Virus record (IMG/VR): IMGVR_UViG_3300034073_004211
Location: 1-22,905 of that record
Direction: 5' to 3' (one strand)
Length of the DNA: 22,905 nucleotides
Source of the DNA: a virus
Shown: piece by piece, positions 5,906 to 17,965 of the stretch
How the letters are laid out: each line of letters opens with the position of its first letter
How positions within the stretch are numbered: position 1 is the stretch's first letter
Notes under the pieces: model-generated
The model's database searches: none
Told to the model about the DNA's origin: nothing
The model's input: the letters and a program-made list of their open reading frames with translations, nothing else
Position numbers and translations under genes: made by a program

Positions 5906-6526
5906 ATGGCATTTCAATCAGTTTGGTATTTTAGTGATCTACCAGATGATGTTGTACACATCATCGAACGAGATCTTACAGAAAAGTTTGATGAGCAAAT
6001 GGCAGACTCCAAACTTCATGGAGATGCTCTCAATAAAGAAAAAAGAAACTCACAAAACGCCTGGATTCCTACCACTCATTGGGTTGGTGGATTTGTGTGG
6101 CATTATATTCAAAGAGCAAATCGTGAGAACTTCCTTTATGACCTTCACTGTATTGATGGAGAATCAATGCAGTTTACAAAATATACTGAGGGACAGTTCT
6201 ATGGTTGGCATAATGACGCAGGACTTTCGACTCAATACAAACCAGTAGCAGTTGGAAATCGTGCTGAAGGTTTGGCACAGGATTATTTTAATGAAAAAAT
6301 TGAAATGGTTCGTAAACTTTCATTTGTAGTTCAGTTGAGTGACCCTGATGATTATGAAGGTGGAAACTTACAACTGCTTGATGAAGCAGGGAATAGTTAT
6401 ATTGCTCCCCGTAAGCGTGGCACTGTAATTCTATTTGATTCTCGCACACAACATAGAGTTCTAAAAGTTACAAAAGGAACCCGCAAATCCCTTGTTGGAT
6501 GGACGGTTGGACCCCGCTGGAAGTGA
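5906..6526 (+). CDS. 2-oxoglutarate/Fe(II) dioxygenase, PKHD/prolyl-4-hydroxylase type
   Basis: The protein has 206 residues, a normal length for PKHD-type hydroxylases. It shows the double-stranded beta-helix signature: YTEGQFYGWHNDAG gives the HxD iron pair (H102, D104), and FDSRTQHRVLKVTKGTRKSL gives the distal His (H183) and the 2-oxoglutarate-binding Arg (R193) with RxS. GGNLQLL near residue 152 is the usual connecting strand. Such enzymes hydroxylate protein side chains or small molecules with O2 and 2-oxoglutarate. The substrate here is unknown. It is followed, eight bases on, by a second, unrelated-looking oxygenase. No strong Shine-Dalgarno sequence precedes the ATG. Confidence 0.9.
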   Translation: MAFQSVWYFSDLPDDVVHIIERDLTEKFDEQMADSKLHGDALNKEKRNSQNAWIPTTHWVGGFVWHYIQRANRENFLYDLHCIDGESMQFTKYTEGQFYGWHNDAGLSTQYKPVAVGNRAEGLAQDYFNEKIEMVRKLSFVVQLSDPDDYEGGNLQLLDEAGNSYIAPRKRGTVILFDSRTQHRVLKVTKGTRKSLVGWTVGPRWK

Positions 6527-6534
6527 GGTAAATT

Positions 6535-7218
6535 ATGGCAGAAAAAATGACAGAAGAGCAATTGCTATGGCAAGAACGACAAAACACAGGAACTGCGTGG
6601 ACTCGAAATGATCAATTTGAAAATGATGGATACTTAGTTATTAAAAATCTTTGGAATTCTATTGATTTGCATAGGTCAGTTCCTGAGATCAGAGGGCAAA
6701 TAAACTTCTGGGGAAAAAATTTAGATCAATATCAGCATATTCCATTAGAAGAACAGGTAGAAGGTTCTATTGCAACTTATACTCATCCCCAATACAGAGA
6801 AGTTCATTCTGGTATTCGTTTGAAATTAGAGGAAATAATTGGACGTAAGTTGTATAATACGTATTACTATGATAGATTTTATTTTGCTGGGCAAGAACTA
6901 AAAAGACATGCCGATCGTGATGCTTGCGAAATTTCTGTAAGTGTTCATGTTAGCACTAATTTAGAAGAATGCTGGCCATTCAAAATCAAAACTGTTGGTG
7001 GAGAAGAGAGATCCCTTTGTTTGGAACCAGGAGATGGTTTGTTGTACAAAGGGTGTGAACGACCACACTGGAGAGATCCCTTGCCATCTAGACATAAAGG
7101 CAATATAATAGGTAGATGGAAGAGGAGAAATGATGATACGTACTATCATCAAATTTTCTTCCATTATGTTCTTGCTGATGGACAACGTGCTCACTGTGCA
7201 AAAGATGCTGCGAGGTAA
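6535..7218 (+). CDS. 2-oxoglutarate/Fe(II) oxygenase family protein
   Basis: This is a 227-residue protein. ELKRHADRDACEISVSVHV carries the HxD pair (H125, D127). EPGDGLLYKGCERPHWRDPL (residues 164-183) supplies the distal His (H178) in the GDGLLYxG...H.R context seen in this phage-associated oxygenase group. QIFFHYVLADG follows as the closing strand. It differs clearly from the PKHD-type neighbour upstream. The first 40 residues look like a helical lead-in with FENDGYLVIKNL, a typical opening of 2OG oxygenases. It ends two bases before the next gene. The reaction is predicted to be a 2-oxoglutarate-dependent hydroxylation or oxidation; the substrate is unknown. Confidence 0.85.
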   Translation: MAEKMTEEQLLWQERQNTGTAWTRNDQFENDGYLVIKNLWNSIDLHRSVPEIRGQINFWGKNLDQYQHIPLEEQVEGSIATYTHPQYREVHSGIRLKLEEIIGRKLYNTYYYDRFYFAGQELKRHADRDACEISVSVHVSTNLEECWPFKIKTVGGEERSLCLEPGDGLLYKGCERPHWRDPLPSRHKGNIIGRWKRRNDDTYYHQIFFHYVLADGQRAHCAKDAAR

Positions 7219-7220
7219 TT

Positions 7221-7550
7221 ATGTCTAAATACGAAAAACTTAAGTCCTATCTTCAAACTCATTACAATTTTCATGCAAATCTGGGGCAATTCAATCTCGG
7301 AGACCATGAACAGTATGAAACTGAAGCAAAATGGAGAATGATCTCAGATATTATGGATTATATTGATAATCTAGATCTTGAAGATAAAGTCATTGAGTTT
7401 CCCGAAACTGATAATGCAACTGGTATTTTTGAATTTCCAAATTATTTGAGTTCTTATGGTGAAGATATGATTTTTGCTGCTGATACAGTTCCTTTTTGTG
7501 GTCTTGAAGGATCTGATGTGATTTCTTTTGATGTTGGAGATGATAAATAA
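7221..7550 (+). CDS. Small acidic protein of unknown function
   Basis: This 109-residue, strongly acidic protein starts MSKYEKLKSYLQTHYNFHAN. A predicted helical section (EAKWRMISDIMDYIDNLDLED, about residues 35-55) precedes a beta-like C-terminus with a single Cys. I recognise no family. It starts two bases after the oxygenase at 6535-7218, so it is probably co-expressed with it. Its last codons (GAT AAA TAA) form part of the late-promoter element of the next cassette, so gene end and promoter are superimposed. Function is unassigned. Confidence 0.65.
   Translation: MSKYEKLKSYLQTHYNFHANLGQFNLGDHEQYETEAKWRMISDIMDYIDNLDLEDKVIEFPETDNATGIFEFPNYLSSYGEDMIFAADTVPFCGLEGSDVISFDVGDDK
7542..7549 (+). 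promoter_or_regulatory. T4-type late promoter-like element (GATAAATA)
   Basis: GATAAATA matches TATAAATA at 7 of 8 positions and is followed by ACTAAAAA. It lies 24 bases before the ATG at 7566. The 15-mer ATAAATAACTAAAAA recurs exactly at 13190 and 17971, each time before a long fiber gene, which strongly supports function. It overlaps the stop codon of the upstream gene. Confidence 0.75.
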
Positions 7551-7565
7551 CTAAAAAACGATAAC

Positions 7566-8789
7566 ATGGGATACCTAGGACAACAATCTAGTTTTACTGG
7601 AACCCAAAATAATATAAGATTATCAGTGTTAGCCACTGCTGGACAGGTAGATTTTTTGCCTAGTGGTGGTTATAATATCAATGCCATTGATGTATATCGT
7701 AATGGTGTGAAGTTAGTTGGACAAAGAGATTTTGTTGCATTAGATGGGGCAACAATAACTCTAATTACTCCAGCAAATCAAAATGATGTTATTGAGTTTG
7801 TCATACATGAAAATTTTGTAGTTGCTGATGTTCTGAATGGCGATGGTGATCAAGTCGTAAGAGGAAATTTCCAAGTCTCTGGTGATCTCTCAGTTGGTGG
7901 ATTATTAAATGCCACTGTTCAATCTACCATTAAAGCTGGTATTGCAACTGAAGCAGTTCGTGCTGGAATGTCCACCGAAGCGACTAGAGCAGGTATTGCA
8001 ACTGAAGCAGTTCGTGCTGGAATGTCCACCGAAGCGACTAGAGCAGGTATTGCAACTGAAGCAGTTCGTGCGGGCATTGCTTCTGTCGCGGTTAGTGCAG
8101 GCATTGCAACATATGCATCAACTGCCGGAGTTTCCACATCTGTTAGCGGATTTCTTGGTGTAGGAGTAACTGGAACAAATCTAAATGTTACTGGTATCAT
8201 CACAGCAAATTCTTTCAGTGGAGATGGATCTGCACTTACTGGAATTGCTGCTACTGATAATGTAAGTACCAGCACTCTTGTAGTTTCTGGTATGTCTACA
8301 TTGAGTGGAAATCTAAATGTATCTGGTATTACAACTTTTACTCAGTCCAATTCAACACACTTCAGAGTTACTGGATTTTCAACACTAGCAAGCGTAACTT
8401 CAAATACGATTACGGTGTCTGGGGTATCTACTTTCAATACCTCAGCAGGTATGGGTACGGTAACCATTGGTATTGGTACAACTGCGTTATTGGTTGATGG
8501 AAATGCTAGAGTTATTGGAATTCTGACCATTGGCAGAAGTTCAATAACTTTGAATGGTAATAGTGATGTTGTTCAGGTTGGAAGTGCAATTACAATGAGA
8601 GGCGGTTCTTCTCAGATTCAGGTCGGAACTGGAGTCACAATTAGTGGTACTCATTTGTCAATCGCTGGTATTATGACTGTTGGATCAATTGGTGCTGCTA
8701 TTGGGAAAAATGCGATAGGAAATAGAACTGTACAATCTGGAGGATCTCCTACTGGTGGATCTGACGGAGATATATACTACATCTACTAA
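7566..8789 (+). CDS. Long tail-fiber-like protein with internal tandem repeats
   Basis: This is a 407-residue protein. Residues about 1-95 hold the AIDVYRNGVKLV / ALDGATITLI / DVIEFVIHENF domain shared with the protein at 634. Residues about 125-170 are a tandem repeat of an 18-residue unit (GIATEAVRAGMSTEATRA, about 2.5 copies) followed by degenerate AGIA-type units. ITANSFSGDGSALTGI (about residues 212-227) is the recurrent fiber module. The C-terminal half is repeats of VSGxSTF/TVSGVSTF type and ends SPTGGSDGDIYYIY. All of this fits a trimeric beta-structured fiber. A chaperone-like gene and a glycine-rich gene follow directly, so it is probably the shaft of that fiber. Confidence 0.82.
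   Translation: MGYLGQQSSFTGTQNNIRLSVLATAGQVDFLPSGGYNINAIDVYRNGVKLVGQRDFVALDGATITLITPANQNDVIEFVIHENFVVADVLNGDGDQVVRGNFQVSGDLSVGGLLNATVQSTIKAGIATEAVRAGMSTEATRAGIATEAVRAGMSTEATRAGIATEAVRAGIASVAVSAGIATYASTAGVSTSVSGFLGVGVTGTNLNVTGIITANSFSGDGSALTGIAATDNVSTSTLVVSGMSTLSGNLNVSGITTFTQSNSTHFRVTGFSTLASVTSNTITVSGVSTFNTSAGMGTVTIGIGTTALLVDGNARVIGILTIGRSSITLNGNSDVVQVGSAITMRGGSSQIQVGTGVTISGTHLSIAGIMTVGSIGAAIGKNAIGNRTVQSGGSPTGGSDGDIYYIY
7938..8071 (+). repeat. 54-bp exact in-frame tandem repeat, about 2.5 copies
   Basis: Copies start at 7938, 7992 and 8046; identity runs without mismatch to 8071, where the third copy diverges. The 54-base unit encodes 18 residues (GIATEAVRAGMSTEATRA), so gain or loss of units keeps the frame. 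Perfect identity at third codon positions indicates recent duplication rather than selection on protein alone. Confidence 0.95.
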
Positions 8790-8800
8790 GGATAAAAACA

Positions 8801-9499
8801 ATGAGTTGGGTAGAAGAAACAGACAAAAAGTATTGGTTTCCTGATGTTCTTCCAGAACTAACTGATGAATGGAATCAGAGTCAAGAAAGACAAAAATATG
8901 TAACTAATTATAATACAGAAAGAATGCATCCTCGTTGGATTTATGACAACGGTGCATTTGTTGATGATGACTATTTGTATTATAATGAGAGTTGGAGAAG
9001 AATCACCAATGCTAATGATGTGCCAACAGCAAATGATAAAGAATTTTATATCAAAAATCCTATTAAAGAGTGGGCAATTAGTGATGATGATAAAACAATT
9101 TCAATTACTTGGAAAACTTATAAAGTAGTTGAACCAGATGTTGGTGATGAAGATACTATTAAAATCAAGGCAACAAAACCAGATGATCAATGGATTCTTG
9201 ATCATAAGAAGTTAACCATCACTAAAGTATATGAAATAACAAGATTTACTGATGAAGAATTGAATACTGAAAAATGGAACATTTTGAGAGGAACAAGAGA
9301 TCTTCTTCTAAAAAATACAGATTATCTTGTTATTCAGGCAACTGAAACTGGAAAATTACTCACTACTGAAATTAAGCAGTATAGACAACAACTTAGAGAT
9401 TTGCCAGAAATTATTGGTGATGTATCACCTTATACTCGATCAATGATTTCTGCAAGGGATTTTTATCCACCACAACCATCTGGTCCTTATTTGGTTTGA
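8801..9499 (+). CDS. Phage tail/fiber assembly chaperone-like protein
   Basis: This 232-residue protein ends in a recognisable module: LRGTRDLLLKNTDYLVIQ, then KQYRQQLRDLPEII (about residues 165-210). The pattern R-x2-LL-x2-TD followed by YRQxLRDLP is that of the phage tail assembly chaperone family (Pfam Phage_tail_APC). The N-terminal 150 residues are aromatic and acidic (MSWVEETDKKYWFPD, WIYDNGAFVDDDYLYYNESW) and I cannot assign them. It sits between a long fiber and a glycine-rich gene, where fiber-folding chaperones are usually encoded. The inferred job is to help fold or attach the neighbouring fiber or tip. Confidence 0.72.
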   Translation: MSWVEETDKKYWFPDVLPELTDEWNQSQERQKYVTNYNTERMHPRWIYDNGAFVDDDYLYYNESWRRITNANDVPTANDKEFYIKNPIKEWAISDDDKTISITWKTYKVVEPDVGDEDTIKIKATKPDDQWILDHKKLTITKVYEITRFTDEELNTEKWNILRGTRDLLLKNTDYLVIQATETGKLLTTEIKQYRQQLRDLPEIIGDVSPYTRSMISARDFYPPQPSGPYLV

Positions 9500-9505
9500 T
9501 AAGAT

Positions 9506-10369
9506 ATGGCAACGCAAATTAAAGACGGAGGAACCTGGAGATCCGCAACTGGTATTCATGTAAAAGATGGTGGAGTTTGGAGAAGTTCCTCTACAGTTCA
9601 TATTAAAGACGCTGGGACCTGGAGACAAGTTTTTTCTTCCGCAATTTCAGATACTTTTACAGTTCCAGCAACAATTTCTGGTCCAGGCACATGGAGTTTT
9701 GTAACTAACGGGGCTCTGAGTTTTCAACCAACAGTTCAACATACTTTTGTTGCTCAGGGACCATATAATCTTAGAATTAGGGCTTGGGGTGGTGGTGGAC
9801 AACCAAATCAAGGATATCCATCTGGAGCTGGAGGGTTTGCTGGTGGGTATTTGCCAGGAACCACGGGAGATACTTTAATTATGAATTCAAATTTTGGGGT
9901 TGTTGGACCTTCTCTTGGTGGCGGCGCGTATGGAGTTTTTGCTTCATCAGTTTCGCAGGCCAATGCGAGGGTAGTTGCCGGTGGCGGAGGCGCAACAGAT
10001 TCTGATGATGGTGGCAGAGGGCAGGTAGCAGGAGCTGGAGGTGGAACATCGGGGCAACCTGGTAGTGGTTATCAATCAACTAACGGTGGTGGTCCTGGTT
10101 ATACTGTTTGGCCTTTACAAGGAGGACCTGGTGCTGGTTATGGTGGAGGATCTGGCGGGGGTTCTGGATATTGGGGAGGTCAAGGTGGTCCAGATATTTG
10201 TTGTCTTGCTGCAACAGGTGGCGGTGGCGGAAGTTCTTATGTGCATCCCACAGTAACATCTCCATCAAATCTTGGCGGATCTAGAGGAACTGTTGGAAAT
10301 CCATCCGATCCTGTGAGAGGAACTGCTGGAAATGCTGGAACGTTAGGAAGACTTTATTTAAGCACATAA
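9506..10369 (+). CDS. Glycine-rich putative fiber tip / adhesin (second of three)
   Basis: This is a 287-residue protein. The N-terminus has three 14-residue repeats, IKDGGTWRS, VKDGGVWRS and IKDAGTWRQ, with Lys at 6, 20 and 34. A short beta section (about 50-90) leads to a glycine-rich domain from about residue 93 (RAWGGGGQPNQGYPSGAGG) to about residue 275. A CC pair occurs in PDICCLAATGGG. The KxGGxWR repeat is common at the N-termini of marine phage tail proteins, where I take it to be a docking region. The stop codon overlaps the ATG of the first of five 2OG oxygenases (TAATG), which makes this protein a plausible substrate. That link is an inference from coupling. Confidence 0.75.
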   Translation: MATQIKDGGTWRSATGIHVKDGGVWRSSSTVHIKDAGTWRQVFSSAISDTFTVPATISGPGTWSFVTNGALSFQPTVQHTFVAQGPYNLRIRAWGGGGQPNQGYPSGAGGFAGGYLPGTTGDTLIMNSNFGVVGPSLGGGAYGVFASSVSQANARVVAGGGGATDSDDGGRGQVAGAGGGTSGQPGSGYQSTNGGGPGYTVWPLQGGPGAGYGGGSGGGSGYWGGQGGPDICCLAATGGGGGSSYVHPTVTSPSNLGGSRGTVGNPSDPVRGTAGNAGTLGRLYLST

Positions 10370-10914
10370 TGTTTATTTTTGAAAAAGATAATGCACTCTC
10401 ACGAGAAAATTGTGAAAAACTGATATCATTATTTGAAGAACTTAAAAATTTTCAACGAGATGGAGAAACTATTGGAGGTTTGAATAAAAATAAGAAGGAT
10501 TGTACTGAAGTATTATTTTCTCCAAATCATCCTGAACTAGATTGTTTATTAGAAACCTTGCAACTTGAATTGCATGAATATGAAAAAACATATCCATTTC
10601 TAAAAAACCTAAGCAGTTTTGGTCAAATAGAAAATATATCACTCAAACGGTATTATCCAGGACAAGCATATCATGAGTTGCATTGCGAAAGAAGCACGAT
10701 TAAAACCTGTGCTAGAATACTGGTGTGGATGCTGTATTTGAATGATGTTCACGATGGCGGAGAAACCCTATTCTATCATCAAAAAAAACTCATAAAACCA
10801 AAACAAGGAAAACTTGTTATTTGGCCTTCTGAGTGGACACATGCTCACAAAGGTCTTACTTCGTCGAGTGAGACCAAATATATAATTTCCAGTTGGTTAA
10901 GTTTTGTATCATGA
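10369..10914 (+). CDS. 2-oxoglutarate/Fe(II) oxygenase, prolyl-4-hydroxylase-like, HxE variant
   Basis: This is a 181-residue protein, first of five oxygenase-like genes in a row. RYYPGQAYHELHCERS contains the expected first ligand region, but the pair reads H105-x-E107 rather than HxD. GGETLFYH is the connecting strand. KPKQGKLVIWPSEWTHAHKG gives the distal His (H160, or H158), and K170 in ETKYIISSW is at the position of the 2-oxoglutarate-binding Lys of prolyl-4-hydroxylases. Glu can replace Asp as iron ligand in some members of the superfamily, so activity is still possible. It starts inside the stop of the glycine-rich gene and ends in an ATGA overlap. Confidence 0.83.
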   Translation: MFIFEKDNALSRENCEKLISLFEELKNFQRDGETIGGLNKNKKDCTEVLFSPNHPELDCLLETLQLELHEYEKTYPFLKNLSSFGQIENISLKRYYPGQAYHELHCERSTIKTCARILVWMLYLNDVHDGGETLFYHQKKLIKPKQGKLVIWPSEWTHAHKGLTSSSETKYIISSWLSFVS

Positions 10915-11420
10915 TTACAATTTACGATAATTTTTTGAAGCAAGATGAAGTCAGAGACATCTATAGTTTTTTGAATACTGATGATTTTATTTGGAATAAA
11001 ATTGATGATTATAGAGGACAGCAAGTAAAAAGAATGTCCTTTGGTAGAACAATAAGACAACCTATGATTGGGGAAATTATGCATGATGACCCCTTGGTAA
11101 GTTATTTGCACAATAAAATTAAAGAAAAAAACATTCCAGAAACAAACAATCTTTATAAGGTTTCTATAAACTGCATCAAACCATTTGAACATTTTGAATA
11201 TCATACCGACGAATGGGGAAGCACTGTAATTTTTTATGTAAATCCCGTTTGGAAATGGTATTGGGGGTCAGGCACTAAGTTTCGTAGAGGAGGAATTGTA
11301 AGACCAAAACCAGGTAGAGCAGTTGTTTTTAATGGAAGAATTCAACACAAAATCATTCCTCCAACTCCTTTGATGAATGATTTTGGTAGACTTTCAATAG
11401 CATTTCAATATAACCCATGA
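10911..11420 (+). CDS. 2-oxoglutarate/Fe(II) oxygenase (second in the five-gene array)
   Basis: From the ATG at 10911 the protein has 169 residues. I prefer this start to the upstream TTG at 10893 because it forms an ATGA overlap with the previous stop, like the other junctions here, and gives a natural N-terminus (MITIYDNFLKQDEVRDIYSFL). FEHFEYHTDEWGS gives H98-x-D100. GRAVVFNGRIQHKI gives the distal His (H146), and R160 (FGRLSIAFQY) is the likely 2-oxoglutarate-binding Arg. The KPGRAVVFNGRIQH section is typical of phage and marine bacterial 2OG oxygenases that act with surface polysaccharide or fiber genes. Substrate unknown. Confidence 0.83.
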   Translation: MITIYDNFLKQDEVRDIYSFLNTDDFIWNKIDDYRGQQVKRMSFGRTIRQPMIGEIMHDDPLVSYLHNKIKEKNIPETNNLYKVSINCIKPFEHFEYHTDEWGSTVIFYVNPVWKWYWGSGTKFRRGGIVRPKPGRAVVFNGRIQHKIIPPTPLMNDFGRLSIAFQYNP

Positions 11421-11983
11421 TTTTTATTGAAGACGAATGTGGAATACCATCTAAAATTTTGGAGCAAATTGATTATCATGTCTTAAAAAATGCAGATTTG
11501 CCGTTTTATTATCGGCACTCATATACTACAGAAAAATTTCCATATTTTAGTCATACTTTGATGCCAAGAGTAGAACTTGGTGAAGTAAGAAAATCCGTAT
11601 ATTTTGACTTTTTCTATAGTATTGTGGTAAACTTTTGCTATAAACATAATATTTCCTTTTCCAATGTAACACGAGCATGTATAAATTCGACCATTCATCA
11701 TGATACTCAATTTTCGGAACCACATATAGATTATACAGATGATCATTATGTTGTTTTGATGTACTTGAATGATTGTGATGGAGAAACGATTATATTTGAC
11801 AAGTATTATGATACAGGTCCTACCTTCATATCAATTGATCAAGGTCAAAGTTTAGATATACTAAAACAAATAACTCCAAAGGCAGGAAAGGTTATACTGT
11901 TTGATGGTAAGTATTTTCATACGAATGTTTTTCCGTCTGTAGGAAAACATAGATTTGTCTGTGTCTTTACACTTCAAAAATAA
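11417..11983 (+). CDS. 2-oxoglutarate/Fe(II) oxygenase (third in the array)
   Basis: This is a 188-residue protein. FSEPHIDYTDDHYVVLMYL gives H103-x-D105. The strand DGETIIFD follows, and then ITPKAGKVILFDGKYFHT with the distal His at H168. R179 (GKHRFVCVF) is the likely 2-oxoglutarate contact. The N-terminus MIFIEDECGIPSKILEQID resembles the short lead-in of its neighbours. Junctions are ATGA upstream and TAATG downstream. All iron ligands are present, so an active dioxygenase is expected. The substrate is not known. The pairwise similarity to neighbouring oxygenases is low, which suggests different substrates or old divergence rather than recent tandem copying. Confidence 0.85.
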   Translation: MIFIEDECGIPSKILEQIDYHVLKNADLPFYYRHSYTTEKFPYFSHTLMPRVELGEVRKSVYFDFFYSIVVNFCYKHNISFSNVTRACINSTIHHDTQFSEPHIDYTDDHYVVLMYLNDCDGETIIFDKYYDTGPTFISIDQGQSLDILKQITPKAGKVILFDGKYFHTNVFPSVGKHRFVCVFTLQK

Positions 11984-12570
11984 TGATTACAATTTTTCCT
12001 TGCATTATTCATACTTTCTTTTTAGAAAATTTTTCTTACCATAAAAATGACTTAATATCATATGTGCATCAAGAAAAATCAAAATCATCTGGAGTAAAAA
12101 AATCAAATGCTGGCGGGTGGCAATCAACAGATGATTACAATCAAAAAGAAGACAATCTAATCAAAAGTTTGATAGATACTCAATTAGAAAGTTTCTTTGC
12201 GAATAAACAAATTTTCAATAATTTTTCCACTGCTAAAATGAATAGTATGTGGTTAAATTGTAATGATACGGGAAATTATAATCATTCTCATAATCATCCA
12301 GGTTGTGACTTATCTGGGGTTTTATGGTTAAAAGTACCAAAAAATAGTGGCAATATAGTTTTTGAATCTCCTTGCAGTTTTCAACAGTACAAAACACTAT
12401 CAAACTATAGTGAAGAGTTTAAAAAATCAACTAATGCTTATGATTGGTTCTATGTTGAACCTCAAGAAGGGTTAATGATATTGTTTCCATCCCACTTAAA
12501 TCATTCGGTCACCTCAAATAAATCAGATCAAGAGAGAATTTCAGTAGCCTTCAATATATCGTTCTCATGA
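11983..12570 (+). CDS. Putative 2OG-Fe(II) oxygenase, HNHPG-type (fourth in the array)
   Basis: The protein has 195 residues. It fits the putative 2OG-Fe(II) oxygenase family marked by GGWQS (44-48), MWLNCNDTGNYN (89-100), HNHPGCDLSGVLWLKVP (103-119), SGNIVFESP (122-130) and a C-terminal LFPSHLNHSV (167-176) with RISVAFN. This corresponds to Pfam 2OG-FeII_Oxy_5. H174 and R185 are the likely distal ligand and 2-oxoglutarate contact; which of H103 and H105 binds iron I cannot tell by eye. The first 13 bases (ATGATTACAATTT) equal those of the gene at 10911. It overlaps the next gene by ATGA. Confidence 0.8.
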   Translation: MITIFPCIIHTFFLENFSYHKNDLISYVHQEKSKSSGVKKSNAGGWQSTDDYNQKEDNLIKSLIDTQLESFFANKQIFNNFSTAKMNSMWLNCNDTGNYNHSHNHPGCDLSGVLWLKVPKNSGNIVFESPCSFQQYKTLSNYSEEFKKSTNAYDWFYVEPQEGLMILFPSHLNHSVTSNKSDQERISVAFNISFS

Positions 12571-13190
12571 CAGAAATTATACCTATTTTTGCAATTCCGT
12601 TGGTGATTGATCATATTCAGCATCTCATTACTAATGAAGTAGTTGAATATGTGAAGAATCTTGAGTATGAACCAGTTCATATTGGTAATGGCGATTGGTC
12701 AAAAAACAAATCAATCTTAGACCATAAAATATTTTCAAATATAAAACAACATATTTGTGGTAACGTTGATAAATTATCTAAAGATGTGTATCTGATTGAT
12801 GATGATCTTGTTTTTGATTATGGAAGATCATGGGCATTGAGACATTCCTATGGACATCATTGTGTAATGCATAATCATACAGGATCTATTTTTAGTGGAG
12901 TTCTCTACATTGATGCTCCAGAAAATTCCGGCGATATTGTATTTCATAATGCAAGTGCAATGGGATGTTCCCATGCTTATCATCAAATTTCCCTCCCATT
13001 TACACATACAAAATTCAATGCATATAACACCCCACATTATACTGTTCCTGCTGTAACTGGAACACTATTATTATTCAGTTCTGGTCTTTCTCATTCTGTG
13101 AAACCAAATCTATCAAACAAAGATCGTTATTCATTATCTTTCAATATATTTCCAAAAGGAATGGTAGGAATAAGCGAATTATTGCTCTGA
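12567..13190 (+). CDS. Putative 2OG-Fe(II) oxygenase, HNHTG-type (fifth in the array)
   Basis: This 207-residue protein is related to its upstream neighbour: MHNHTGSIFSGVLYIDAPE (101-119) followed by SGDIVFHNA, and LLFSSGLSHSV (168-178) with RYSLSFNIFP. H176 and R187 correspond to the distal His and the 2-oxoglutarate-binding Arg of the family. The start MTEIIPIFAIPLVIDHI matches the IPIFxxPL opening typical of these proteins. Between residues 130 and 160 there is a His-rich insertion (CSHAYHQISLPFTHTKF) that the neighbour lacks in this form. It closes the oxygenase array; the next late promoter overlaps its stop codon. Substrate unknown. Confidence 0.8.
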   Translation: MTEIIPIFAIPLVIDHIQHLITNEVVEYVKNLEYEPVHIGNGDWSKNKSILDHKIFSNIKQHICGNVDKLSKDVYLIDDDLVFDYGRSWALRHSYGHHCVMHNHTGSIFSGVLYIDAPENSGDIVFHNASAMGCSHAYHQISLPFTHTKFNAYNTPHYTVPAVTGTLLLFSSGLSHSVKPNLSNKDRYSLSFNIFPKGMVGISELLL

Positions 13191-13196
13191 TAAATA
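13189..13196 (+). promoter_or_regulatory. T4-type late promoter-like element (GATAAATA)
   Basis: GATAAATA overlaps the stop codon of the last oxygenase and is followed by ACTAAAAA. It lies 27 bases before the ATG at 13216. The exact 15-mer ATAAATAACTAAAAA is shared with 7543 and 17971. Its position favours the ATG at 13216 over an in-frame TTG at 13207 as start of the next gene. Confidence 0.75.
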
Positions 13197-13215
13197 ACTA
13201 AAAAATTTGTCGGTA

Positions 13216-14235
13216 ATGGCAATAACAAAAGCTACAAATCTAGCAGCAGTTGGATCTGGGCTAGGAACATCTCCATCACAACCAATAGATATTGGAATTG
13301 GTATAACCCTAGATGGAAACTCTGGCGTAATTACGGCATCTAAAGGTAATTTTGGAACTGTCTCTATTGATGGAAACTCTGGCGTAATTACGGCATCTAA
13401 AGGTAATTTTGGAACTGTCTCTATTGATGGAACTGGTATTGGCATCATCACCGCAAATACTTTTAATGGCACTGCAACTAATGCTGGTAGTGCCACTGGA
13501 TTAGGACCAGGTGCTACGGGTTCTAATCTTTCTTTGACTGCAGATCTAAGTGCAAGACATATCAATGCATTGGGAGTTGTCACTGCAACACAGTTCAGTG
13601 GAAATATTTCTGGTGTTGCAGCAACATTTGCTGGAAATGTAACTGTTGGTGGTACTTTGACTTATGATGATGTAACTAATGTAGACTCAATTGGATTGAT
13701 TACTGCTAGAAACGGTCTCCAAGTTACTGGTGGAATTACTACAATTAGTGGTCAAGCAAATCTAAGTAATACTACAATTACCGGTGTTACTACAATCACT
13801 AACGTTGTAATTCCGAATGAATCTAGATTCTCTAACGTCGCAGAAAAGATGGTTAGAGTATCAGCATCATCAAGTGTTGGAGTCTGCACATATACATCCA
13901 CTGCAAATATTATCTATTTTGATAATCCTTCTGCTGATGTTGTAATTAGAGTTGAAGGAATTCCAACTGATAGTTCTTTTGACAATCATTCAATTTCTGT
14001 TTCTGCAATTCTAAGAACAACAGGAACTGGTCGCAGTTGTCATACGTTTGTTAGACTAAATGGTGTAGAAAGAGCAGTGAAGTTTGCTGGAGGTTCTAGA
14101 AACGAGGCAACTTCAGGTGTCACAACCACCAATGGATACACAGTTTATAATTTTGTTGGAGTAAATACAATTGGTTCAGCAAGTTCTGCTGCTAATTACG
14201 AAGTATTTGGAATTGTTTCTGGCGGATTTTTCTGA
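13216..14235 (+). CDS. Long tail-fiber-like protein with tandem repeat and C-terminal beta domain
   Basis: From ATG 13216 the protein has 339 residues. It starts MAITKATNLAAVGSGLG. Residues about 33-73 are two exact copies of DGNSGVITASKGNFGTVSI. Fiber modules follow (GIITANTF, GVVTATQFSGN, and TISGQANLSNTTITGVTTI). From about residue 200 the composition changes to a compact domain (NESRFSNVAEKMVRVSASS ... TFVRLNGVERAVKF) with two Cys, which may be a receptor-binding or knob domain. The stop overlaps the ATG of the glycine-rich gene (TGATG). It is probably the shaft protein of the third cassette. Confidence 0.8.
   Translation: MAITKATNLAAVGSGLGTSPSQPIDIGIGITLDGNSGVITASKGNFGTVSIDGNSGVITASKGNFGTVSIDGTGIGIITANTFNGTATNAGSATGLGPGATGSNLSLTADLSARHINALGVVTATQFSGNISGVAATFAGNVTVGGTLTYDDVTNVDSIGLITARNGLQVTGGITTISGQANLSNTTITGVTTITNVVIPNESRFSNVAEKMVRVSASSSVGVCTYTSTANIIYFDNPSADVVIRVEGIPTDSSFDNHSISVSAILRTTGTGRSCHTFVRLNGVERAVKFAGGSRNEATSGVTTTNGYTVYNFVGVNTIGSASSAANYEVFGIVSGGFF
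13312..13432 (+). repeat. 57-bp exact in-frame tandem repeat, 2 copies plus a short third start
   Basis: Copies start at 13312 and 13369, and a seven-base start of a third is at 13426. The unit encodes the 19 residues DGNSGVITASKGNFGTVSI. No mismatch separates the two copies, so the duplication is recent. The 57-base length keeps the frame. Confidence 0.95.
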
Positions 14236-15107
14236 TGGCACCTATTGTATCAAGAATTTCTCAATCTTTTGGATTTGGTAATAGAAAAAAATTAAGGGGG
14301 GCCTCCGGACCAAAAAATATACAAATCTATCTTTGGGGTGGGTTTGGTACACCGGGCAGGGGCGGCGCGCCAGGCGGCGGCGGATGGGTACAAATACAAG
14401 GAACTGCTAATCCAGGAACAGTTATTGGATATATTGTTGGATCTAGAGATGGAGCAAGAAATTTTTATACTGGAGGAGGCGGGTCTCGCGCAGCTGGCGG
14501 GTTTTCTGCAGCTTTTGTTGGTCCAGTAGATGGCACTACAGGTAGAACTTATGTATTGGGAGTTGCTGGCGGTGCCGGCGGTGGCGGAAATGATGGATAT
14601 GATAGCGCACAAGGCGGTGCTGGGGGTGGACCTTCTGGTACAACTGCAGTAGAGATTCCAGATTTTGGTTTACGGGGTGGTGGTGCCACTCAAAATGCCG
14701 GCGGTGGCGGCGGATCAGGCGCAAGTTCAGGAGGTCAGTGGTTAGGTGGGAATGGCGCATCCCCCACCGAAGGCGGCGGCGGCGGCGGTGGTTGGTATGG
14801 TGGTGGCGGTGGTGGCACTAATGGTGGATATGATGCAGGAGGAGGTGGAGGATCAGGATATGTTAATTCCGGAACAGTAACTCAACCTGGATTTGGTTCT
14901 TTTACAATTACATCAACTACAAATCTGTCAGGAAATGGAGCTCCAGGTAGTCCCTCTGGTGGAAGTGGAACATATAATAATCCTAGCCCATATCCAAACG
15001 CCCCAGGCACTACTGGAAAAGTTCTTATTGTTGTAAATAACGTAGTAGTTGTTGATGACACATCTGCACCACCAGGATCTGCAGTAGAAACTTATACCAT
15101 AATTTGA
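14235..15107 (+). CDS. Glycine-rich putative fiber tip / adhesin (third of three)
   Basis: This is a 290-residue protein. A basic N-terminus (about 1-26, SFGFGNRKKLRG) leads into QIYLWGGFGTPGRGGAPGGG and glycine-rich repeats up to about residue 215. The region encoding residues about 175-200 contains runs of GGC/GGT codons. The end (GKVLIVVNNVVVVDD, then PPGSAVETYTII) is a short beta tail. It is the third glycine-rich protein in the window and, like the second, directly follows other fiber genes. The stop codon lies inside the -35 box of the promoter at 15104. A receptor-binding tip like the glycine-rich adhesins of some T4-like phages is the best inference. Confidence 0.75.
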   Translation: MAPIVSRISQSFGFGNRKKLRGASGPKNIQIYLWGGFGTPGRGGAPGGGGWVQIQGTANPGTVIGYIVGSRDGARNFYTGGGGSRAAGGFSAAFVGPVDGTTGRTYVLGVAGGAGGGGNDGYDSAQGGAGGGPSGTTAVEIPDFGLRGGGATQNAGGGGGSGASSGGQWLGGNGASPTEGGGGGGGWYGGGGGGTNGGYDAGGGGGSGYVNSGTVTQPGFGSFTITSTTNLSGNGAPGSPSGGSGTYNNPSPYPNAPGTTGKVLIVVNNVVVVDDTSAPPGSAVETYTII

Positions 15108-15154: not shown

Positions 15155-15514
15155 ATGAAGACCCTTTGTAACGAATACGAAGAAAGCGTATATCTTTTTC
15201 CAGACTTTATCCCAATCAGATTTGATGAAGATCTGGGTCAGTGGTGGATTGACAATACCATGATTCCAGATCTACCTCACTACTACGTTCTTCATGAAGA
15301 TGTAGAAGAACCAAAGAATTGGTACAAGAAAAAATATAAATTCAATCCAACTGATGGGTGGAGATTCAATCCAGATTGGGATGGAGAAGATCTCAAACTT
15401 CATAGAAACTTTGAAAGAAAACTGCACAAGATGCTCAAAGTTCTCTATCAAAAAGATATTCTAACAGAAGAAGAGATGAATAACCTATTCAACACTGATG
15501 ATAATCAACTATGA
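15155..15514 (+). CDS. Unknown protein heading the sugar module
   Basis: This 119-residue protein is aromatic and acidic. It starts MKTLCNEYEESVYLFPDFIP. The middle contains GQWWIDNTMIPDLPHYYVL and GWRFNPDWDGED. The C-terminal 40 residues look like a helical hairpin (ERKLHKMLKVLYQKDILTEEEMNNLF). I recognise no family. It is the first gene behind the consensus sigma-70 promoter and overlaps the glycosyltransferase-like gene by ATGA, so it probably serves the same pathway or is an early phage protein that shares the transcript. Function cannot be assigned. Confidence 0.65.
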   Translation: MKTLCNEYEESVYLFPDFIPIRFDEDLGQWWIDNTMIPDLPHYYVLHEDVEEPKNWYKKKYKFNPTDGWRFNPDWDGEDLKLHRNFERKLHKMLKVLYQKDILTEEEMNNLFNTDDNQL

Positions 15515-16509
15515 GTCGTTTTGGAACTAAAGAACTTCTCAACTATTGGGCAGGAACTGACCAGTTTTTAGATTATAATTTTATTCCTGGGGTGCAGACA
15601 GAAACCATGGGACGTAAAGAGTTCTATGCTGACTTCATGTGCTCCAGTGTTTACATCTGGAGTGAGTATTTACAAAACAAACTCACAAAACCATCATATT
15701 ATGTTCACCTAGGTGCGAGTCCTTTTGTTTATGCTGATGCACTGATTCCAAGGCAAGAAAGAAAAGGTATCTGCATCTTTCTTCCAAAGGGAGATATTGC
15801 AACTGGAATTGATTTCAATAAGGTTGTCTACGAAAACTTTAGACAAATCGTATCAACTTCTAATGAACCAGTTTATGCAATGGCACCTGCAGAACAAAAG
15901 GATGAATGGTATCGTGCCTTTGCATATGAAGGATTGGAAAATGTGAAAATTATCAGCATTTTCAATGATCCAGGTATTGAAGAATGGCAATTAGGTCTTG
16001 CTGTGGCAATGGGAAAGTTTAAGTTATTTTATTTCCCACTCTTTACATCAGCAACTCTTTATGCATATTATAGTGGTGCAATCGTTCGTTATTACGATCC
16101 TGGTGATATTTTCTATCGCTTTGACAAAGAGAGTACGATTGATACCTATGCCAATCTAGAACTAATTCACAAGAAGTTTGAAGATCTTTGGATACAGAAT
16201 GTAGATGATCGTGAAATTATATCCAGCATGGTCAAATTGTTTCTGTGTCCACACAAAAGGGAAACACCAGAACAATTACTCAAATCTCTTTACATGTTAA
16301 ACTTTTATTCAAATCGTTTGACTGAGAATCATGGTAGAATGTGGGATGATTGGTTCTATGGAAACTCTACAGGTAGAATCATTCCTGAAGCAGTTCCTCT
16401 TTCGTTATATGATAAAGACAAAGCGATAGAAAAACTTGAGATGAAGTGTAAAATGTATGATAAAATGGAGTATCATCCTGAAGTTGCTAAACTGATTCCT
16501 GAACTATGA
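15511..16509 (+). CDS. Glycosyltransferase-like protein (paralog of 4200-5168)
   Basis: This is a 332-residue protein. The region LGASPFVYADALIPRQERKG, then ICIFLPKGD, then KLFYFPLFTSATLYAYYSGA with IVRYYDPGDIFYRF matches the paralog at 4200 block by block; a later helical block (MVKLFLCPHKRETPEQLLKSL) also aligns with LSLDLLETPSNLYKKL. The strand, Thr-Ser-Ala, helix, strand order resembles the donor-binding half of GT-B glycosyltransferases. It overlaps the KdsB-like gene by ATGA, which makes a CMP-sugar-using transferase an attractive but unproven idea. No membrane segment is seen, so it should be cytoplasmic. Confidence 0.7.
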   Translation: MSRFGTKELLNYWAGTDQFLDYNFIPGVQTETMGRKEFYADFMCSSVYIWSEYLQNKLTKPSYYVHLGASPFVYADALIPRQERKGICIFLPKGDIATGIDFNKVVYENFRQIVSTSNEPVYAMAPAEQKDEWYRAFAYEGLENVKIISIFNDPGIEEWQLGLAVAMGKFKLFYFPLFTSATLYAYYSGAIVRYYDPGDIFYRFDKESTIDTYANLELIHKKFEDLWIQNVDDREIISSMVKLFLCPHKRETPEQLLKSLYMLNFYSNRLTENHGRMWDDWFYGNSTGRIIPEAVPLSLYDKDKAIEKLEMKCKMYDKMEYHPEVAKLIPEL

Positions 16510-17231
16510 TTACTTGTATTATTCCTGCTCGATTAGGATCATCAAGATTTCCTGGCAAACCATTATACAAAATCAAAGGAAAAGAGATGATTTTGCATGT
16601 AATTGATCGTGCAAAAGAAAGTATTAAAATTGATGAGATTGTTGTTGCAACTGAAGATCAGGACATCTATGATGTTGTGACAAATTATGGGCACAAGTGT
16701 ATCATTACTGAAAAATGTCCTACATGTACGCATAGAGTTTATCTGTGCTCTCACATGTTAGATCGTCGTCCAGATTATGTTGTCAATCTTCAAGGTGATG
16801 AACCATGCATGAATGTGACTGCCATGGACGCAATGATTCAATATGCAGTTGATCATAAACATCAGATGGTTCAGGCAATTTACAATATTGATGAAAATGA
16901 TCTTGCGGATGAAGATTGTGTAAAGGCAGTTGTAAACAACAATTGTATCATTTGGTTATCGAGGAATCCAGAAAAAGAATGGATGATCAATCGTCACATT
17001 TTTGGCATATCTGGTCTTTACGTTTATGACTACGATACGATTTCAAAATTCGGACAGTATGACTTGCGTATGGTAGAAGACTGTGCTAGTCTTGATACGT
17101 TAGGTTTTATTGGAAAAGTACCAGTAAGACCATTTAATATTCAAACAAGAACACATGCCGTTGATCGTTTATCTGACATTGAAGTGGTAAAAGATGAAAT
17201 ACATCGTAGACATAGATGGAACAATCTGTGA
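16506..17231 (+). CDS. kdsB: CMP-sugar synthetase, KdsB-like (3-deoxy-manno-octulosonate cytidylyltransferase family)
   Basis: The protein has 241 residues, close to the usual KdsB length of about 250. It shows the family motifs in order: IIPARLGSSRFPGKPL (5-20, nucleotide binding), MILHVIDRA (28-36), VVATEDQDI (46-54), VVNLQGDEP (92-100) and the C-terminal DRLSDIEVV (220-228). FGISGLYVYDYDTISKF corresponds to the HxGIYxYR region. The usual SGTDR loop is replaced by CTHRV (74-78), which may change sugar specificity. KdsB activates Kdo with CTP to CMP-Kdo for LPS or capsule. The acceptor here could be a fiber or the host surface. The 38-base overlap with the next gene implies co-expression. 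Confidence 0.82.
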   Translation: MITCIIPARLGSSRFPGKPLYKIKGKEMILHVIDRAKESIKIDEIVVATEDQDIYDVVTNYGHKCIITEKCPTCTHRVYLCSHMLDRRPDYVVNLQGDEPCMNVTAMDAMIQYAVDHKHQMVQAIYNIDENDLADEDCVKAVVNNNCIIWLSRNPEKEWMINRHIFGISGLYVYDYDTISKFGQYDLRMVEDCASLDTLGFIGKVPVRPFNIQTRTHAVDRLSDIEVVKDEIHRRHRWNNL

Positions 17232-17520
17232 ACATGTAAACAATCCAGGATTTGGAACTGGTAAAGTTTATTATGATCGCATTGAGAAGATAAATCAACT
17301 CTTTGATGAAGGACATGAAATTATCTACTACACTGCTCGTGGAATGGGAGAATATGATGGATCTATTCACAATGCTCATCAAAAGTGGTATAATTACACA
17401 TATAATCAACTAGAAACTTGGGGATGTAAGTTTACTAAACTCATTCTTGGAAAATATTCTGGCGACATTTACATTGACGATAAAGGAGTAAACAGTGACG
17501 ATTTCTTTAGATCTAATTGA
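17194..17520 (+). CDS. HAD-family phosphatase of the capsule/LPS biosynthesis type
   Basis: The protein has 108 residues. HAD motif I is VDIDGTIC (D6, D8), motif II is YYTARGMGEY (T47), a GK (K87) fits motif III, and IDDKGVNSDDFF (D95, D96) is motif IV. It has no cap domain. Short HAD proteins with the YTARGM...Y motif are found in polysaccharide gene clusters, where they dephosphorylate sugar phosphates. It lies between a KdsB-like and an SIS-type gene, as expected for a sugar-phosphate step. The start overlaps the end of the KdsB-like gene by 38 bases; the DIDGT motif itself is encoded in the overlap, so the overlap cannot be a start-site error. Confidence 0.82.
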   Translation: MKYIVDIDGTICEHVNNPGFGTGKVYYDRIEKINQLFDEGHEIIYYTARGMGEYDGSIHNAHQKWYNYTYNQLETWGCKFTKLILGKYSGDIYIDDKGVNSDDFFRSN

Positions 17521-17965
17521 ACTGGTCAACCAATCAAACAGTATTGCTATTATTGGAAATGGCGGAAATCTTGCTATTGCCCAACATGTTGCAAGTGATA
17601 TGAATAGGTATCTTGGTAAATTCTGTTTTGCTCCAGATGCTGTTCATCTTTCTGCACTATCTAAAGATCAACCATGGCATCTTCCGTGGATTGAATATGC
17701 TGCTAAACATGCAGATTTGATTCTTGGAATCAGCACAAGGAATGATTCTCCGATTGCAAATAGTTTAGCATATGTTAATTGTAAGACGTATTTGTTTGCA
17801 CCAGAAAAACATGAAACAGTTCCTACCGTCGTTGTAGATAAAAATAGTTGTCAAAGATTAGATTCTACAAAAGAAAATCTAACATTCCATGAATTTGAAG
17901 TGGAAGTTTTGTGGCAGTTTTATATGTTGTTCCAAGCATGTGGTGCTGACTTGATGACTATTTGA
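17495..17965 (+). CDS. SIS-domain sugar-phosphate isomerase, GmhA-like
   Basis: This is a 156-residue protein. AIIGNGGNLAIAQHVASDMNR (about 18-38) matches the GNGGSAADAQHFAAE motif of phosphoheptose isomerase GmhA, and LILGISTRNDSP (75-86) matches the second phosphate-binding loop. The C-terminal helix (FHEFEVEVLWQFYMLF) fits the SIS fold. GmhA is usually about 190 residues with an N-terminal helical extension; this protein starts almost directly at the SIS core, so it is shorter. It would act on a ketose phosphate upstream of the sugar activated by KdsB. Arabinose-5-phosphate isomerase-like activity is an alternative. It overlaps the HAD gene by 26 bases. Confidence 0.8.
   Translation: MTISLDLIELVNQSNSIAIIGNGGNLAIAQHVASDMNRYLGKFCFAPDAVHLSALSKDQPWHLPWIEYAAKHADLILGISTRNDSPIANSLAYVNCKTYLFAPEKHETVPTVVVDKNSCQRLDSTKENLTFHEFEVEVLWQFYMLFQACGADLMTI

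What the first reader, a model, noticed from the sequence alone, without database searches (positions are those of the whole stretch)
9506..13190. A glycine-rich fiber gene translationally coupled to five consecutive 2OG-Fe(II) oxygenase genes
The sequence shows six genes joined by TAATG or ATGA junctions without any gap: a glycine-rich protein (9506), then oxygenases at 10369, 10911, 11417, 11983 and 12567. Iron and 2-oxoglutarate residues can be read in each, with less certainty in the last two. Several 2OG oxygenases per genome are known for T4-like cyanophages, but five in one coupled array behind a putative adhesin is striking. The inference is a hydroxylation line that modifies the glycine-rich tip, the fiber or a surface glycan, possibly with one enzyme per site. 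Low similarity between the five argues for different targets.
Basis: partly seen in the sequence, partly recalled or inferred. Interest (0 to 1): 0.85.

Follow-up and report, generated by a model that had tools for sequence, protein, structure and literature searches.

The report
Oxygenase gene array behind fibre tip
An uncultured marine cyanophage carries five overlapping oxygenase genes directly behind a glycine-rich, tail-tip-like gene; the arrangement is real and kept in related phages, which makes enzymatic finishing of the phage's own tail tip a testable but unproven idea.

Summary
Five ORFs (10369-13190) overlap by 1-4 bases behind a glycine-rich gene (9506), and each matches a 2OG-Fe(II) oxygenase family. 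One more oxygenase and one probable one sit upstream (5906, 6535). The array lies between two exact late-promoter-like sites, with a fibre gene and a tail chaperone. The order is kept in related contigs at 58-70% protein identity, with active-site residues intact; these contigs form essentially two independent groups. In one relative (L174) tip body and enzyme set differ together: one other oxygenase stands where the five are. This favours, without proving, enzymes matched to their tip.

Against a general rule: 11 marine T4-like isolates carry 10-22 such genes each, without significant genome-wide attraction to fibre genes (16 of 49 within 4 kb, null 11.6, p 0.20). Twelve of 15 groups of other tips with this anchor show no oxygenase in the flank seen. 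Tandem runs already exist in isolates; papers seen read such genes as metabolism or DNA repair.

The last two genes are the strongest Pfam hits of the five, but their family has H-x-H, not H-x-D. Hydroxylation of tip or fibre is plausible and untested; structure prediction failed. A new variant of a known kind.

The parts
5906..6526 (+). OX_A, 2OG-Fe(II) oxygenase (P4H/PKHD-like)
   Evidence: PF13640 2.8e-15; H102, D104, H183, R193 in 20 of 20 aligned sequences, window and twin included; PKHD-type hydroxylase PiuC in PDB 2.7e-5
6535..7218 (+). OX_B, probable 2OG oxygenase of the family PHROGs names ferrochelatase
   Evidence: phrog_2954 7.9e-58; PF13532 only 0.039, below cut-off; no NCBIfam match; H125-x-D127 kept in the three orthologs; membership weaker than the others
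7543..7557 (+). late-promoter-like site ATAAATAACTAAAAA
   Evidence: exact match; in the 72.6 kb twin all four occurrences of its core precede ORF starts, three of them fibre-like genes; also before the 7566 counterpart of G007 and G004
7566..8789 (+). tail-fibre-like protein with repeats, first gene of the presumed unit
   Evidence: similar to other fibre-like ORFs of the window; only parts conserved in G003/G004, 55% over its length in G007
8801..9499 (+). tail assembly chaperone-like protein
   Evidence: PF16778 4.5e-8, over cut-off
9506..10369 (+). glycine-rich putative distal tip/adhesin with an N-terminal three-repeat K-D-[GA]-G-x-W anchor
   Evidence: 70-72% identity to four related contigs
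10369..10914 (+). OX1, prolyl-4-hydroxylase-like oxygenase (HCE...H...K)
10911..11420 (+). OX2, 2OG-Fe(II) oxygenase (HTD...H...R)
   Evidence: phrog_274 3.9e-23; A4 invariant columns; NCBIfam FlmC-family model 4.1e-12 but 46.5 bits against a cut-off of 240
11417..11983 (+). OX3, 2OG-Fe(II) oxygenase (HID...H...R)
   Evidence: phrog_274 5e-28; A4 invariant columns
11983..12570 (+). OX4, PF13759/TIGR02466 oxygenase (HNH...H...R)
12567..13190 (+). OX5, PF13759/TIGR02466 oxygenase (HNH...H...R)
13190..13204 (+). second late-promoter-like site, presumed end of the unit that holds the array
   Evidence: exact match; G007 and G004 have only a looser form (ATAAATAATTAGAAA) at the same place
13207..14235 (+). 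fibre-like gene starting the next presumed unit (TTG start as listed; ATG at 13216)
   Evidence: first about 185 residues conserved in relatives, the rest not matched
14235..15107 (+). second glycine-rich tip-like gene, no oxygenase behind it here
   Evidence: in relative L011 the gly-rich gene at this slot is followed by an oxygenase

Best explanation
A late transcription unit of a T4-like cyanophage makes a tail fibre, its assembly chaperone, a glycine-rich distal tip and five 2OG-Fe(II) oxygenases together. The oxygenases hydroxylate residues (Pro, Asn/Asp or Lys) of the newly made tip and/or neighbouring fibre proteins before or during tail assembly, each on its own site or residue type, so that the finished tip is stabilised or given its receptor-binding chemistry. 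The enzymes stay in the cell and are not part of the virion. Shown by sequence: order, coupling, families, active-site residues, conservation. Inferred: late expression, tip role of 9506, substrate, hydroxylation and its effect.
For: Coupled order, between two late-promoter-like sites. Order kept in G003/G004, G007 and, as far as it reaches, L163. dN/dS 0.08-0.32 for the oxygenase comparisons that could be computed, many with saturated dS. Active-site residues kept in distant relatives. OX1 is nearest in PDB to prolyl 4-hydroxylases (1.9e-6), the profile of the OX2/OX3 family to the HIF prolyl hydroxylase EGLN1 (4.3e-4), OX_A to PKHD-type hydroxylases (2.7e-5). The full-length 9506-type body is followed by OX1 and OX2 in 4 of 4 genomes with downstream sequence (two groups by tip identity); L174, with another body, has one other oxygenase there instead. 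In L011 a glycine-rich gene at the next slot also has its own oxygenase. None of the 24 annotated oxygenases of S-SCSM1 is marked virion protein, as expected of modifying enzymes.
Against: No hydroxylation data. The related contigs are less independent than their number: G007, G004, L163 and L172 tips are 87-96% identical to each other and the three OX1 98-99%, so tip plus OX1 amounts to two groups. No significant fibre proximity of oxygenases in isolates: 6 of 159 within 1 kb with window-derived markers (null 7.3); 16 of 49 within 4 kb with annotated fibres (null 11.6, p 0.20). In S-SCSM1 16 of 24 are more than 4 kb from a gene labelled tail fiber, mostly among replication, glycan and photosynthesis genes, though ORF16 and ORF88 adjoin other virion-protein genes. 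Single oxygenases of other isolates sit after the major capsid gene, psbD or replication genes. Twelve of 15 groups of tips with the same anchor show no oxygenase near. P-RSM6 has an array near psbA and talC with no fibre-labelled gene in the stretch seen. The window's own second glycine-rich gene (14235) has none behind it. L174 is a single 5 kb contig, and its chaperone also differs (35%). Two other oxygenases of the twin contig lie outside the fibre block. Similarity to protein hydroxylases does not fix the substrate.
Confidence: 0.4

Rival explanations
1. The oxygenases act on host metabolites, nucleic acids or the 2OG pool (auxiliary metabolic genes), and their place in the fibre region is a gene-hotspot accident.
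For: Published readings of such genes: modulation of 2OG and nitrogen metabolism (PMC3037559, passages), DNA repair (Syn9 as told in PMC2984593, passages), host reprogramming (PMC9602691, passages). Oxygenases lie in many parts of isolate genomes with no significant fibre bias, some beside uvsX, uvsY and uvsW.
Against: In the window's lineage the array sits in a fibre unit behind a late-type site and is kept in order in relatives; tip body and enzyme set differ together in L174. A simple 2OG sink would not need three active-site types.
Confidence: 0.3
2. The enzymes tailor a glycan or small molecule of the phage or host surface (for example a sugar made by the phage's own glycan genes) rather than the tip protein.
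For: The next unit carries a cytidylyltransferase (PF02348 5e-32), an ORF with sub-cut-off HAD-type matches and one with a sub-cut-off SIS match; the twin contig starts with glycosyltransferase- and UDP-sugar-dehydrogenase-like ORFs (read by eye); in S-SCSM1 some oxygenases lie beside fucosyltransferase and GDP-sugar genes.
Against: The sugar genes are in the next unit, not in the array; nearest solved relatives of OX1-OX3 and OX_A are protein hydroxylases.
Confidence: 0.2
3. The enzymes assist fibre or tip folding as non-catalytic chaperones, catalysis being incidental.
For: They follow a tail assembly chaperone gene; none of 24 in S-SCSM1 is marked virion protein.
Against: The metal and 2OG residues make up four of the five invariant columns in the OX2/OX3 family, which argues for catalysis.
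Confidence: 0.05

Closest known systems
2OG-Fe(II) oxygenases of T4-like marine phages (PHROGs 61, 81, 274, 2297; Pfam PF13640, PF13759)
   Same: Families, gene size, several copies per genome, tandem runs (S-SCSM1 240-243 beside tail fibers 244/245; S-SM1 051-061; HTVC008M gp068-072; S-CAM4 fibre-2OG-chaperone-2OG-2OG)
   Different: Here five different ones are coupled to a glycine-rich tip-like gene and kept as a block in the relatives found
Prolyl 4-hydroxylases (3itq, 5hv0, 5c5t; 5c5t being a chlorella-virus enzyme is recalled)
   Same: OX1 has H-x-E...H and K ten residues after the second H; PDB profile match 1.9e-6
   Different: Substrate unknown; no systematic search for collagen-like tracts was made; E rather than D in OX1
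Salmonella phage S16 gp38 tip adhesin (polyglycine II sandwich)
   Same: Glycine-rich body; N-terminal attachment with three tryptophans (PMC6851490, passages) against three K-D-[GA]-G-x-W repeats here
   Different: No sequence comparison with gp38 was run and no structure was obtained; body well conserved among the relatives seen
S-SCSM1, Synechococcus phage with 24 such genes (PMC9602691)
   Same: Contains a four-gene run next to fibre-labelled genes
   Different: Paper (abstract and passages seen) interprets them as host metabolism; its run was not shown to be orthologous to this array

Membership tests
2OG-Fe(II) oxygenase superfamily (OX1-OX3, OX_A) | H-x-D/E...H triad and distal R/K for 2OG | tested here: met
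   OX2/OX3: H, D, H, R in 30 of 30. OX1: H 30/30, E 22 and D 8, H 30/30, K 30/30; OX_A: H, D, H, R 20/20. The last two counts include the window's own and its twin. Residue roles are recalled
2OG-Fe(II) oxygenase superfamily (OX4, OX5) | canonical H-x-D/E | tested here: not met
   H-x-H in 53 of 53, with H 53/53 and R 51/53; they are members of PF13759/TIGR02466 over cut-off, a family whose chemistry I could not test
2OG-Fe(II) oxygenase superfamily (OX_B) | family match and triad | tested here: inconclusive
   PF13532 0.039 only; H-x-D kept in three orthologs; second His and Arg not assigned
2OG-Fe(II) oxygenase superfamily | double-stranded beta-helix fold | tested here: inconclusive
   AlphaFold2 of OX2 and OX3 with three-row alignments: pLDDT 31.8 and 35.3
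2OG-Fe(II) oxygenase superfamily | 2OG-dependent oxidation | not testable with these tools
   needs enzyme assays
Prolyl 4-hydroxylase (OX1) | profile similarity and Lys at +10 after the second His | tested here: met
   the role of that Lys is recalled
Prolyl 4-hydroxylase (OX1) | hydroxylates proline in a peptide | not testable with these tools
   none
gp38-like polyglycine adhesin (9506) | glycine-rich motifs in a polyglycine II sandwich on a fibre-attachment domain | tested here: inconclusive
   74 of 287 residues are Gly and a three-Trp repeat is present; no match over cut-off in Pfam or NCBIfam (only PF00801 PKD 0.0027, below cut-off) and unnamed PHROGs to the anchor at about 5e-5; no structure
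T4-type late transcription unit | TATAAATA-like late promoter at the head (consensus recalled) | tested here: met
   ATAAATAACTAAAAA exact at 7543, 13190, 17971; with up to 3 mismatches nine matches, reached by 2 of 100 shuffles; no expression data

The most novel reading that the evidence does not exclude
A virus builds its receptor-binding tip with chemistry beyond the twenty amino acids: a coupled set of different hydroxylases, inherited and exchanged as a cassette with the tip it modifies, so that host recognition depends on enzymatic finishing of the tip.
Probability: 0.23. Interest if true: 0.87.

Novelty: new variant of a known kind. Interest (0 to 1): 0.5.

Why it matters
2OG oxygenases are much repeated and unexplained genes of marine T4-like phages: 10-22 per genome in the 11 isolates counted here, against 1-5 usually quoted (PMC9602691, passage), nine in S-SZBM1 (PMC9146016, passage) and 24 in S-SCSM1. 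The papers seen read them as metabolic or repair helpers. A subset locked to a tail-tip-like gene gives a concrete, cheap test: search virion mass-spectrometry data for hydroxylated fibre peptides. If positive, it would explain part of this gene expansion and add post-translational modification as a layer of phage host range.

Tried and rejected
tblastn of the glycine-rich protein in the phage collection: no match at 1e-5. Papers holding FlmC together with oxygenase (a model name that OX2 matches far below its cut-off): none.

Rejected: the names 'DNA endonuclease V' and 'DNA endonuclease' for these proteins; the invariant columns are those of a 2OG oxygenase. The name 'ferrochelatase' for OX_B is doubted, not disproved. 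Rejected: that such arrays are unique; comparable runs exist in isolates. Not supported: a general rule that cyanophage oxygenases sit by fibres; two shift tests were not significant. The first used fibre markers derived from the window and found none in S-CAM4 and S-CAM1, so it is weak; the second covers three genomes, with 'tail fiber' as annotated and oxygenases taken from annotation and the census together. Its null counts shifts that fall inside fibre genes, which makes it somewhat conservative.

Rows dropped or missed: the census finds 21 of the 24 oxygenases annotated in S-SCSM1, so its counts are low there. Its motif check (H-x-D/E...H...R/K) was met by 146 of 186 census ORFs and by 114 of 538 other ORFs of 140-260 residues; the H-x-H family is outside that pattern. 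Six of 34 OX2/OX3 relatives were left out of A4 because they lay on the twin or G004; the window's own two were put in directly. The tip search used two short patterns and is not exhaustive. L185 was not extracted and is counted as a group of its own. Isolate records were chosen from hit lists, not at random.

Changed on checking: the number of independent relatives was overstated at first; one search shows two groups, and I lowered the best explanation from 0.42 to 0.40 and the novel case from 0.25 to 0.23, raising the metabolic rival from 0.28 to 0.30.

Papers: eight were seen as passages found by term only (PMC3037559, PMC2984593, PMC9602691, PMC9146016, PMC9611531, PMC6851490, PMC9301287, PMC10598087), none in full; others only as search listings. 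That the fibre-oxygenase array is not described in print rests on searches of the held library only.
Full report
What is there. The window is a 22,905-base virus record. An uncultured 72.6 kb contig contains it at 100% identity; that contig encodes a photosystem D1-like ORF, a phoH-like ORF and T4-like tail ORFs, read by eye, so the phage is most likely a T4-like cyanophage. Nucleotide matches to isolates are few and short (4 records). The six ORFs of the finding are at the stated places and their junctions overlap by 1 or 4 bases.

Families and active sites. OX1, OX4 and OX5 exceed Pfam cut-offs (PF13640, PF13759, PF13759); OX2 and OX3 do not but match phrog_274 strongly. That PHROG is named DNA endonuclease V. 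An alignment of OX2, OX3 and 28 relatives has five invariant columns, H103, D105, F162, H168 and R179 of OX3: the iron triad and 2OG arginine plus one Phe. 18 of 30 members reach PF13640 at E 0.001, and the profile's best solved match is the HIF prolyl hydroxylase EGLN1 (4.3e-4). OX1 relatives keep H (30/30), E or D (22 and 8), H (30/30) and K (30/30), as in prolyl 4-hydroxylases (role of K recalled). OX4 and OX5 belong to a family with H-x-H (53/53), H (53/53) and R (51/53). So the array mixes three active-site types. Upstream, 5906 is a PKHD/P4H-like oxygenase and 6535 a probable one.

Expression unit. ATAAATAACTAAAAA occurs exactly three times in the window, each directly before a fibre-like ORF: 7543, 13190 and 17971. 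In the twin contig a shortened core occurs four times, each before an ORF start, three of them these fibre genes. G007 and G004 have the core before their counterpart of 7566 but only a looser form before that of 13216. No exact copy lies inside 7566-13190; one loose match with three mismatches is at 11866. The simplest reading is one late unit: fibre 7566, chaperone 8801, tip 9506, OX1-OX5. This is inferred from sequence; I saw no expression data.

Conservation. The order OX_A, OX_B, fibre, chaperone, tip, OX1-OX5, fibre recurs in G003/G004 (two near-identical contigs) and in G007 (84 kb), OX1-OX5 at 58-70% identity. L163 shows the same order until it ends inside OX2; L172 ends inside the tip and has an additional oxygenase between OX_B and fibre. 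These relatives are not independent of each other: their tips are 87-96% identical and OX1 98-99% (three contigs), against 70-72% and 66% to the window. dN/dS is 0.08-0.32 for the oxygenase comparisons that could be computed; several dS values are above 1 and saturated, and OX1 of G007 against G004 had no synonymous change. Comparing G007 with G004, the block is a mosaic: chaperone 0.97, tip 0.88, OX1 0.98, OX2 0.96, OX3 0.64, OX4 0.91, OX5 0.66, OX_A 0.79, OX_B 0.63. So single enzymes are also exchanged on their own, which fits separate tasks and weakens the idea of an indivisible line.

The tip and its relatives. 9506 begins with three repeats around K-D-[GA]-G-x-W (W at 11, 25, 39). S16 gp38 also attaches by three tryptophans (PMC6851490, passages); the parallel is mine and untested. 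A search with the tip alignment gave 30 loci: 7 carry the full-length body (5 genomes) and 23 only the anchor with other bodies, 15 groups after merging near-identical copies. With the full-length body, OX1 and OX2 follow in 4 of 4 genomes with downstream sequence, and OX3-OX5 in 3 of 3 that reach so far. With other bodies, an oxygenase lies within the available flank, up to 5 kb, in 3 of 15 groups (L174, L193/L194, L196); some flanks are very short. L174 is the telling one: OX_A (86% over a cut end), OX_B (73%), fibre (50%) and chaperone (35%), then the anchor (62%) with another glycine-rich body, then a single minus-strand oxygenase (28% to OX5), then the next fibre (41%). At the neighbouring slot, L011 has a glycine-rich gene followed by an OX1-like oxygenase, the window a glycine-rich gene without one, L017 a gene without the glycine-rich body and no oxygenase.

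Isolates. A profile census of 11 marine T4-like isolates found 159 oxygenase ORFs, 10-22 per genome; reversed-sequence controls gave none. Adjacent oxygenase pairs exceed random placement clearly in HTVC008M (p 0.001) and S-SM1 (0 of 2000) and weakly in S-RIM44 and P-RSM6 (0.0185 each); the other seven do not at 0.05; the twin, G007 and G004 do. Runs beside fibres: S-SCSM1 ORFs 240-243 before tail fiber 244, S-CAM4 gp230, gp228, gp227 around a tail chaperone and after a short tail fiber. In S-RIM2 the gene labelled tail fiber before a 2OG gene is itself an oxygenase by profile. Runs elsewhere: P-RSM6 near psbA and talC, HTVC008M beside neck genes. Single genes lie after the capsid gene (P-SSM5), psbD (S-CAM3) and in a replication/recombination block (S-CAM7). 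Shift tests do not show attraction to fibres overall (6 of 159 within 1 kb, null 7.3; 5 of 49 within 1 kb, null 6.7; 16 of 49 within 4 kb, null 11.6, p 0.20; 25 of 49 within 8 kb, null 16.9, p 0.10). In S-SCSM1 none of the 24 carries the virion mark.

Reading. The strongest case for tip modification is local: coupling, the late-type unit, block conservation, the L174 replacement and protein-hydroxylase relatives. The strongest case against is global: in the genomes tested most oxygenases lie elsewhere, and most tip groups of this anchor type lack them in the flank seen. I therefore hold tip or fibre hydroxylation as the best single explanation at 0.40, the metabolic or hotspot reading at 0.30, glycan tailoring at 0.2.

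Literature. Prior readings are nitrogen/2OG control (PMC3037559), DNA repair (PMC2984593) and host reprogramming (PMC9602691), all seen as passages. A Baltic virome paper remarks that collagen can be part of viral tail fibers and that the use of viral prolyl 4-hydroxylase is cryptic (PMC9301287, passage), so the broad thought is not new; the array and the tip link were not found in searches.

Noticed in passing
window 11983-13190: OX4, OX5 and the aligned members of their family from 11 isolates and the related contigs have H-x-H (53 of 53) instead of H-x-D/E, with H and R further on: a possibly unusual metal site in PF13759/TIGR02466.
   Followed up: partly
window 10911-11983; S-SSM4, S-CAM4, S-SM1 records: Proteins named DNA endonuclease V or DNA endonuclease in GenBank/PHROGs look like 2OG oxygenases by active site; 'ferrochelatase' (phrog_2954, 3531) and one 'tail fiber protein' of S-RIM2 (162872-163372) also look misnamed.
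   Followed up: partly
L174 3908-4534: The OX1-OX5 array is absent and a single minus-strand oxygenase stands in its place, behind a different glycine-rich tip body.
   Followed up: partly
L011 11105-12511: A different glycine-rich gene is followed by an extra OX1-like oxygenase at the slot where the window has 14235 without one.
   Followed up: partly
G007 against G004, counterparts of window 8801-13190: Patchwork of near-identical (chaperone, tip, OX1, OX2, OX4) and diverged (OX3, OX5) genes, a sign of recombination within the array.
   Followed up: partly
L017 414-2336: Two further oxygenase-like ORFs (one by profile, one by eye) flank a radical-SAM-like ORF (CxxxCxxC, by eye) upstream of OX_A.
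   Followed up: no
window 15511-17965: A cytidylyltransferase (PF02348) with HAD-like and SIS-like ORFs (both below cut-off) forms a sugar-activation-like set behind 15511, which is 25% identical to the unknown protein at 4200.
   Followed up: no
window 7931-8071, 13312-13432, 18395-18573: Exact or near-exact internal repeats (64-110 bases) in the three fibre-like genes.
   Followed up: no
L198, L200, L201, L202: OX1-like genes (35-37%) in Gammaproteobacteria MAGs seem, by eye, to share chromosomal neighbours.
   Followed up: no
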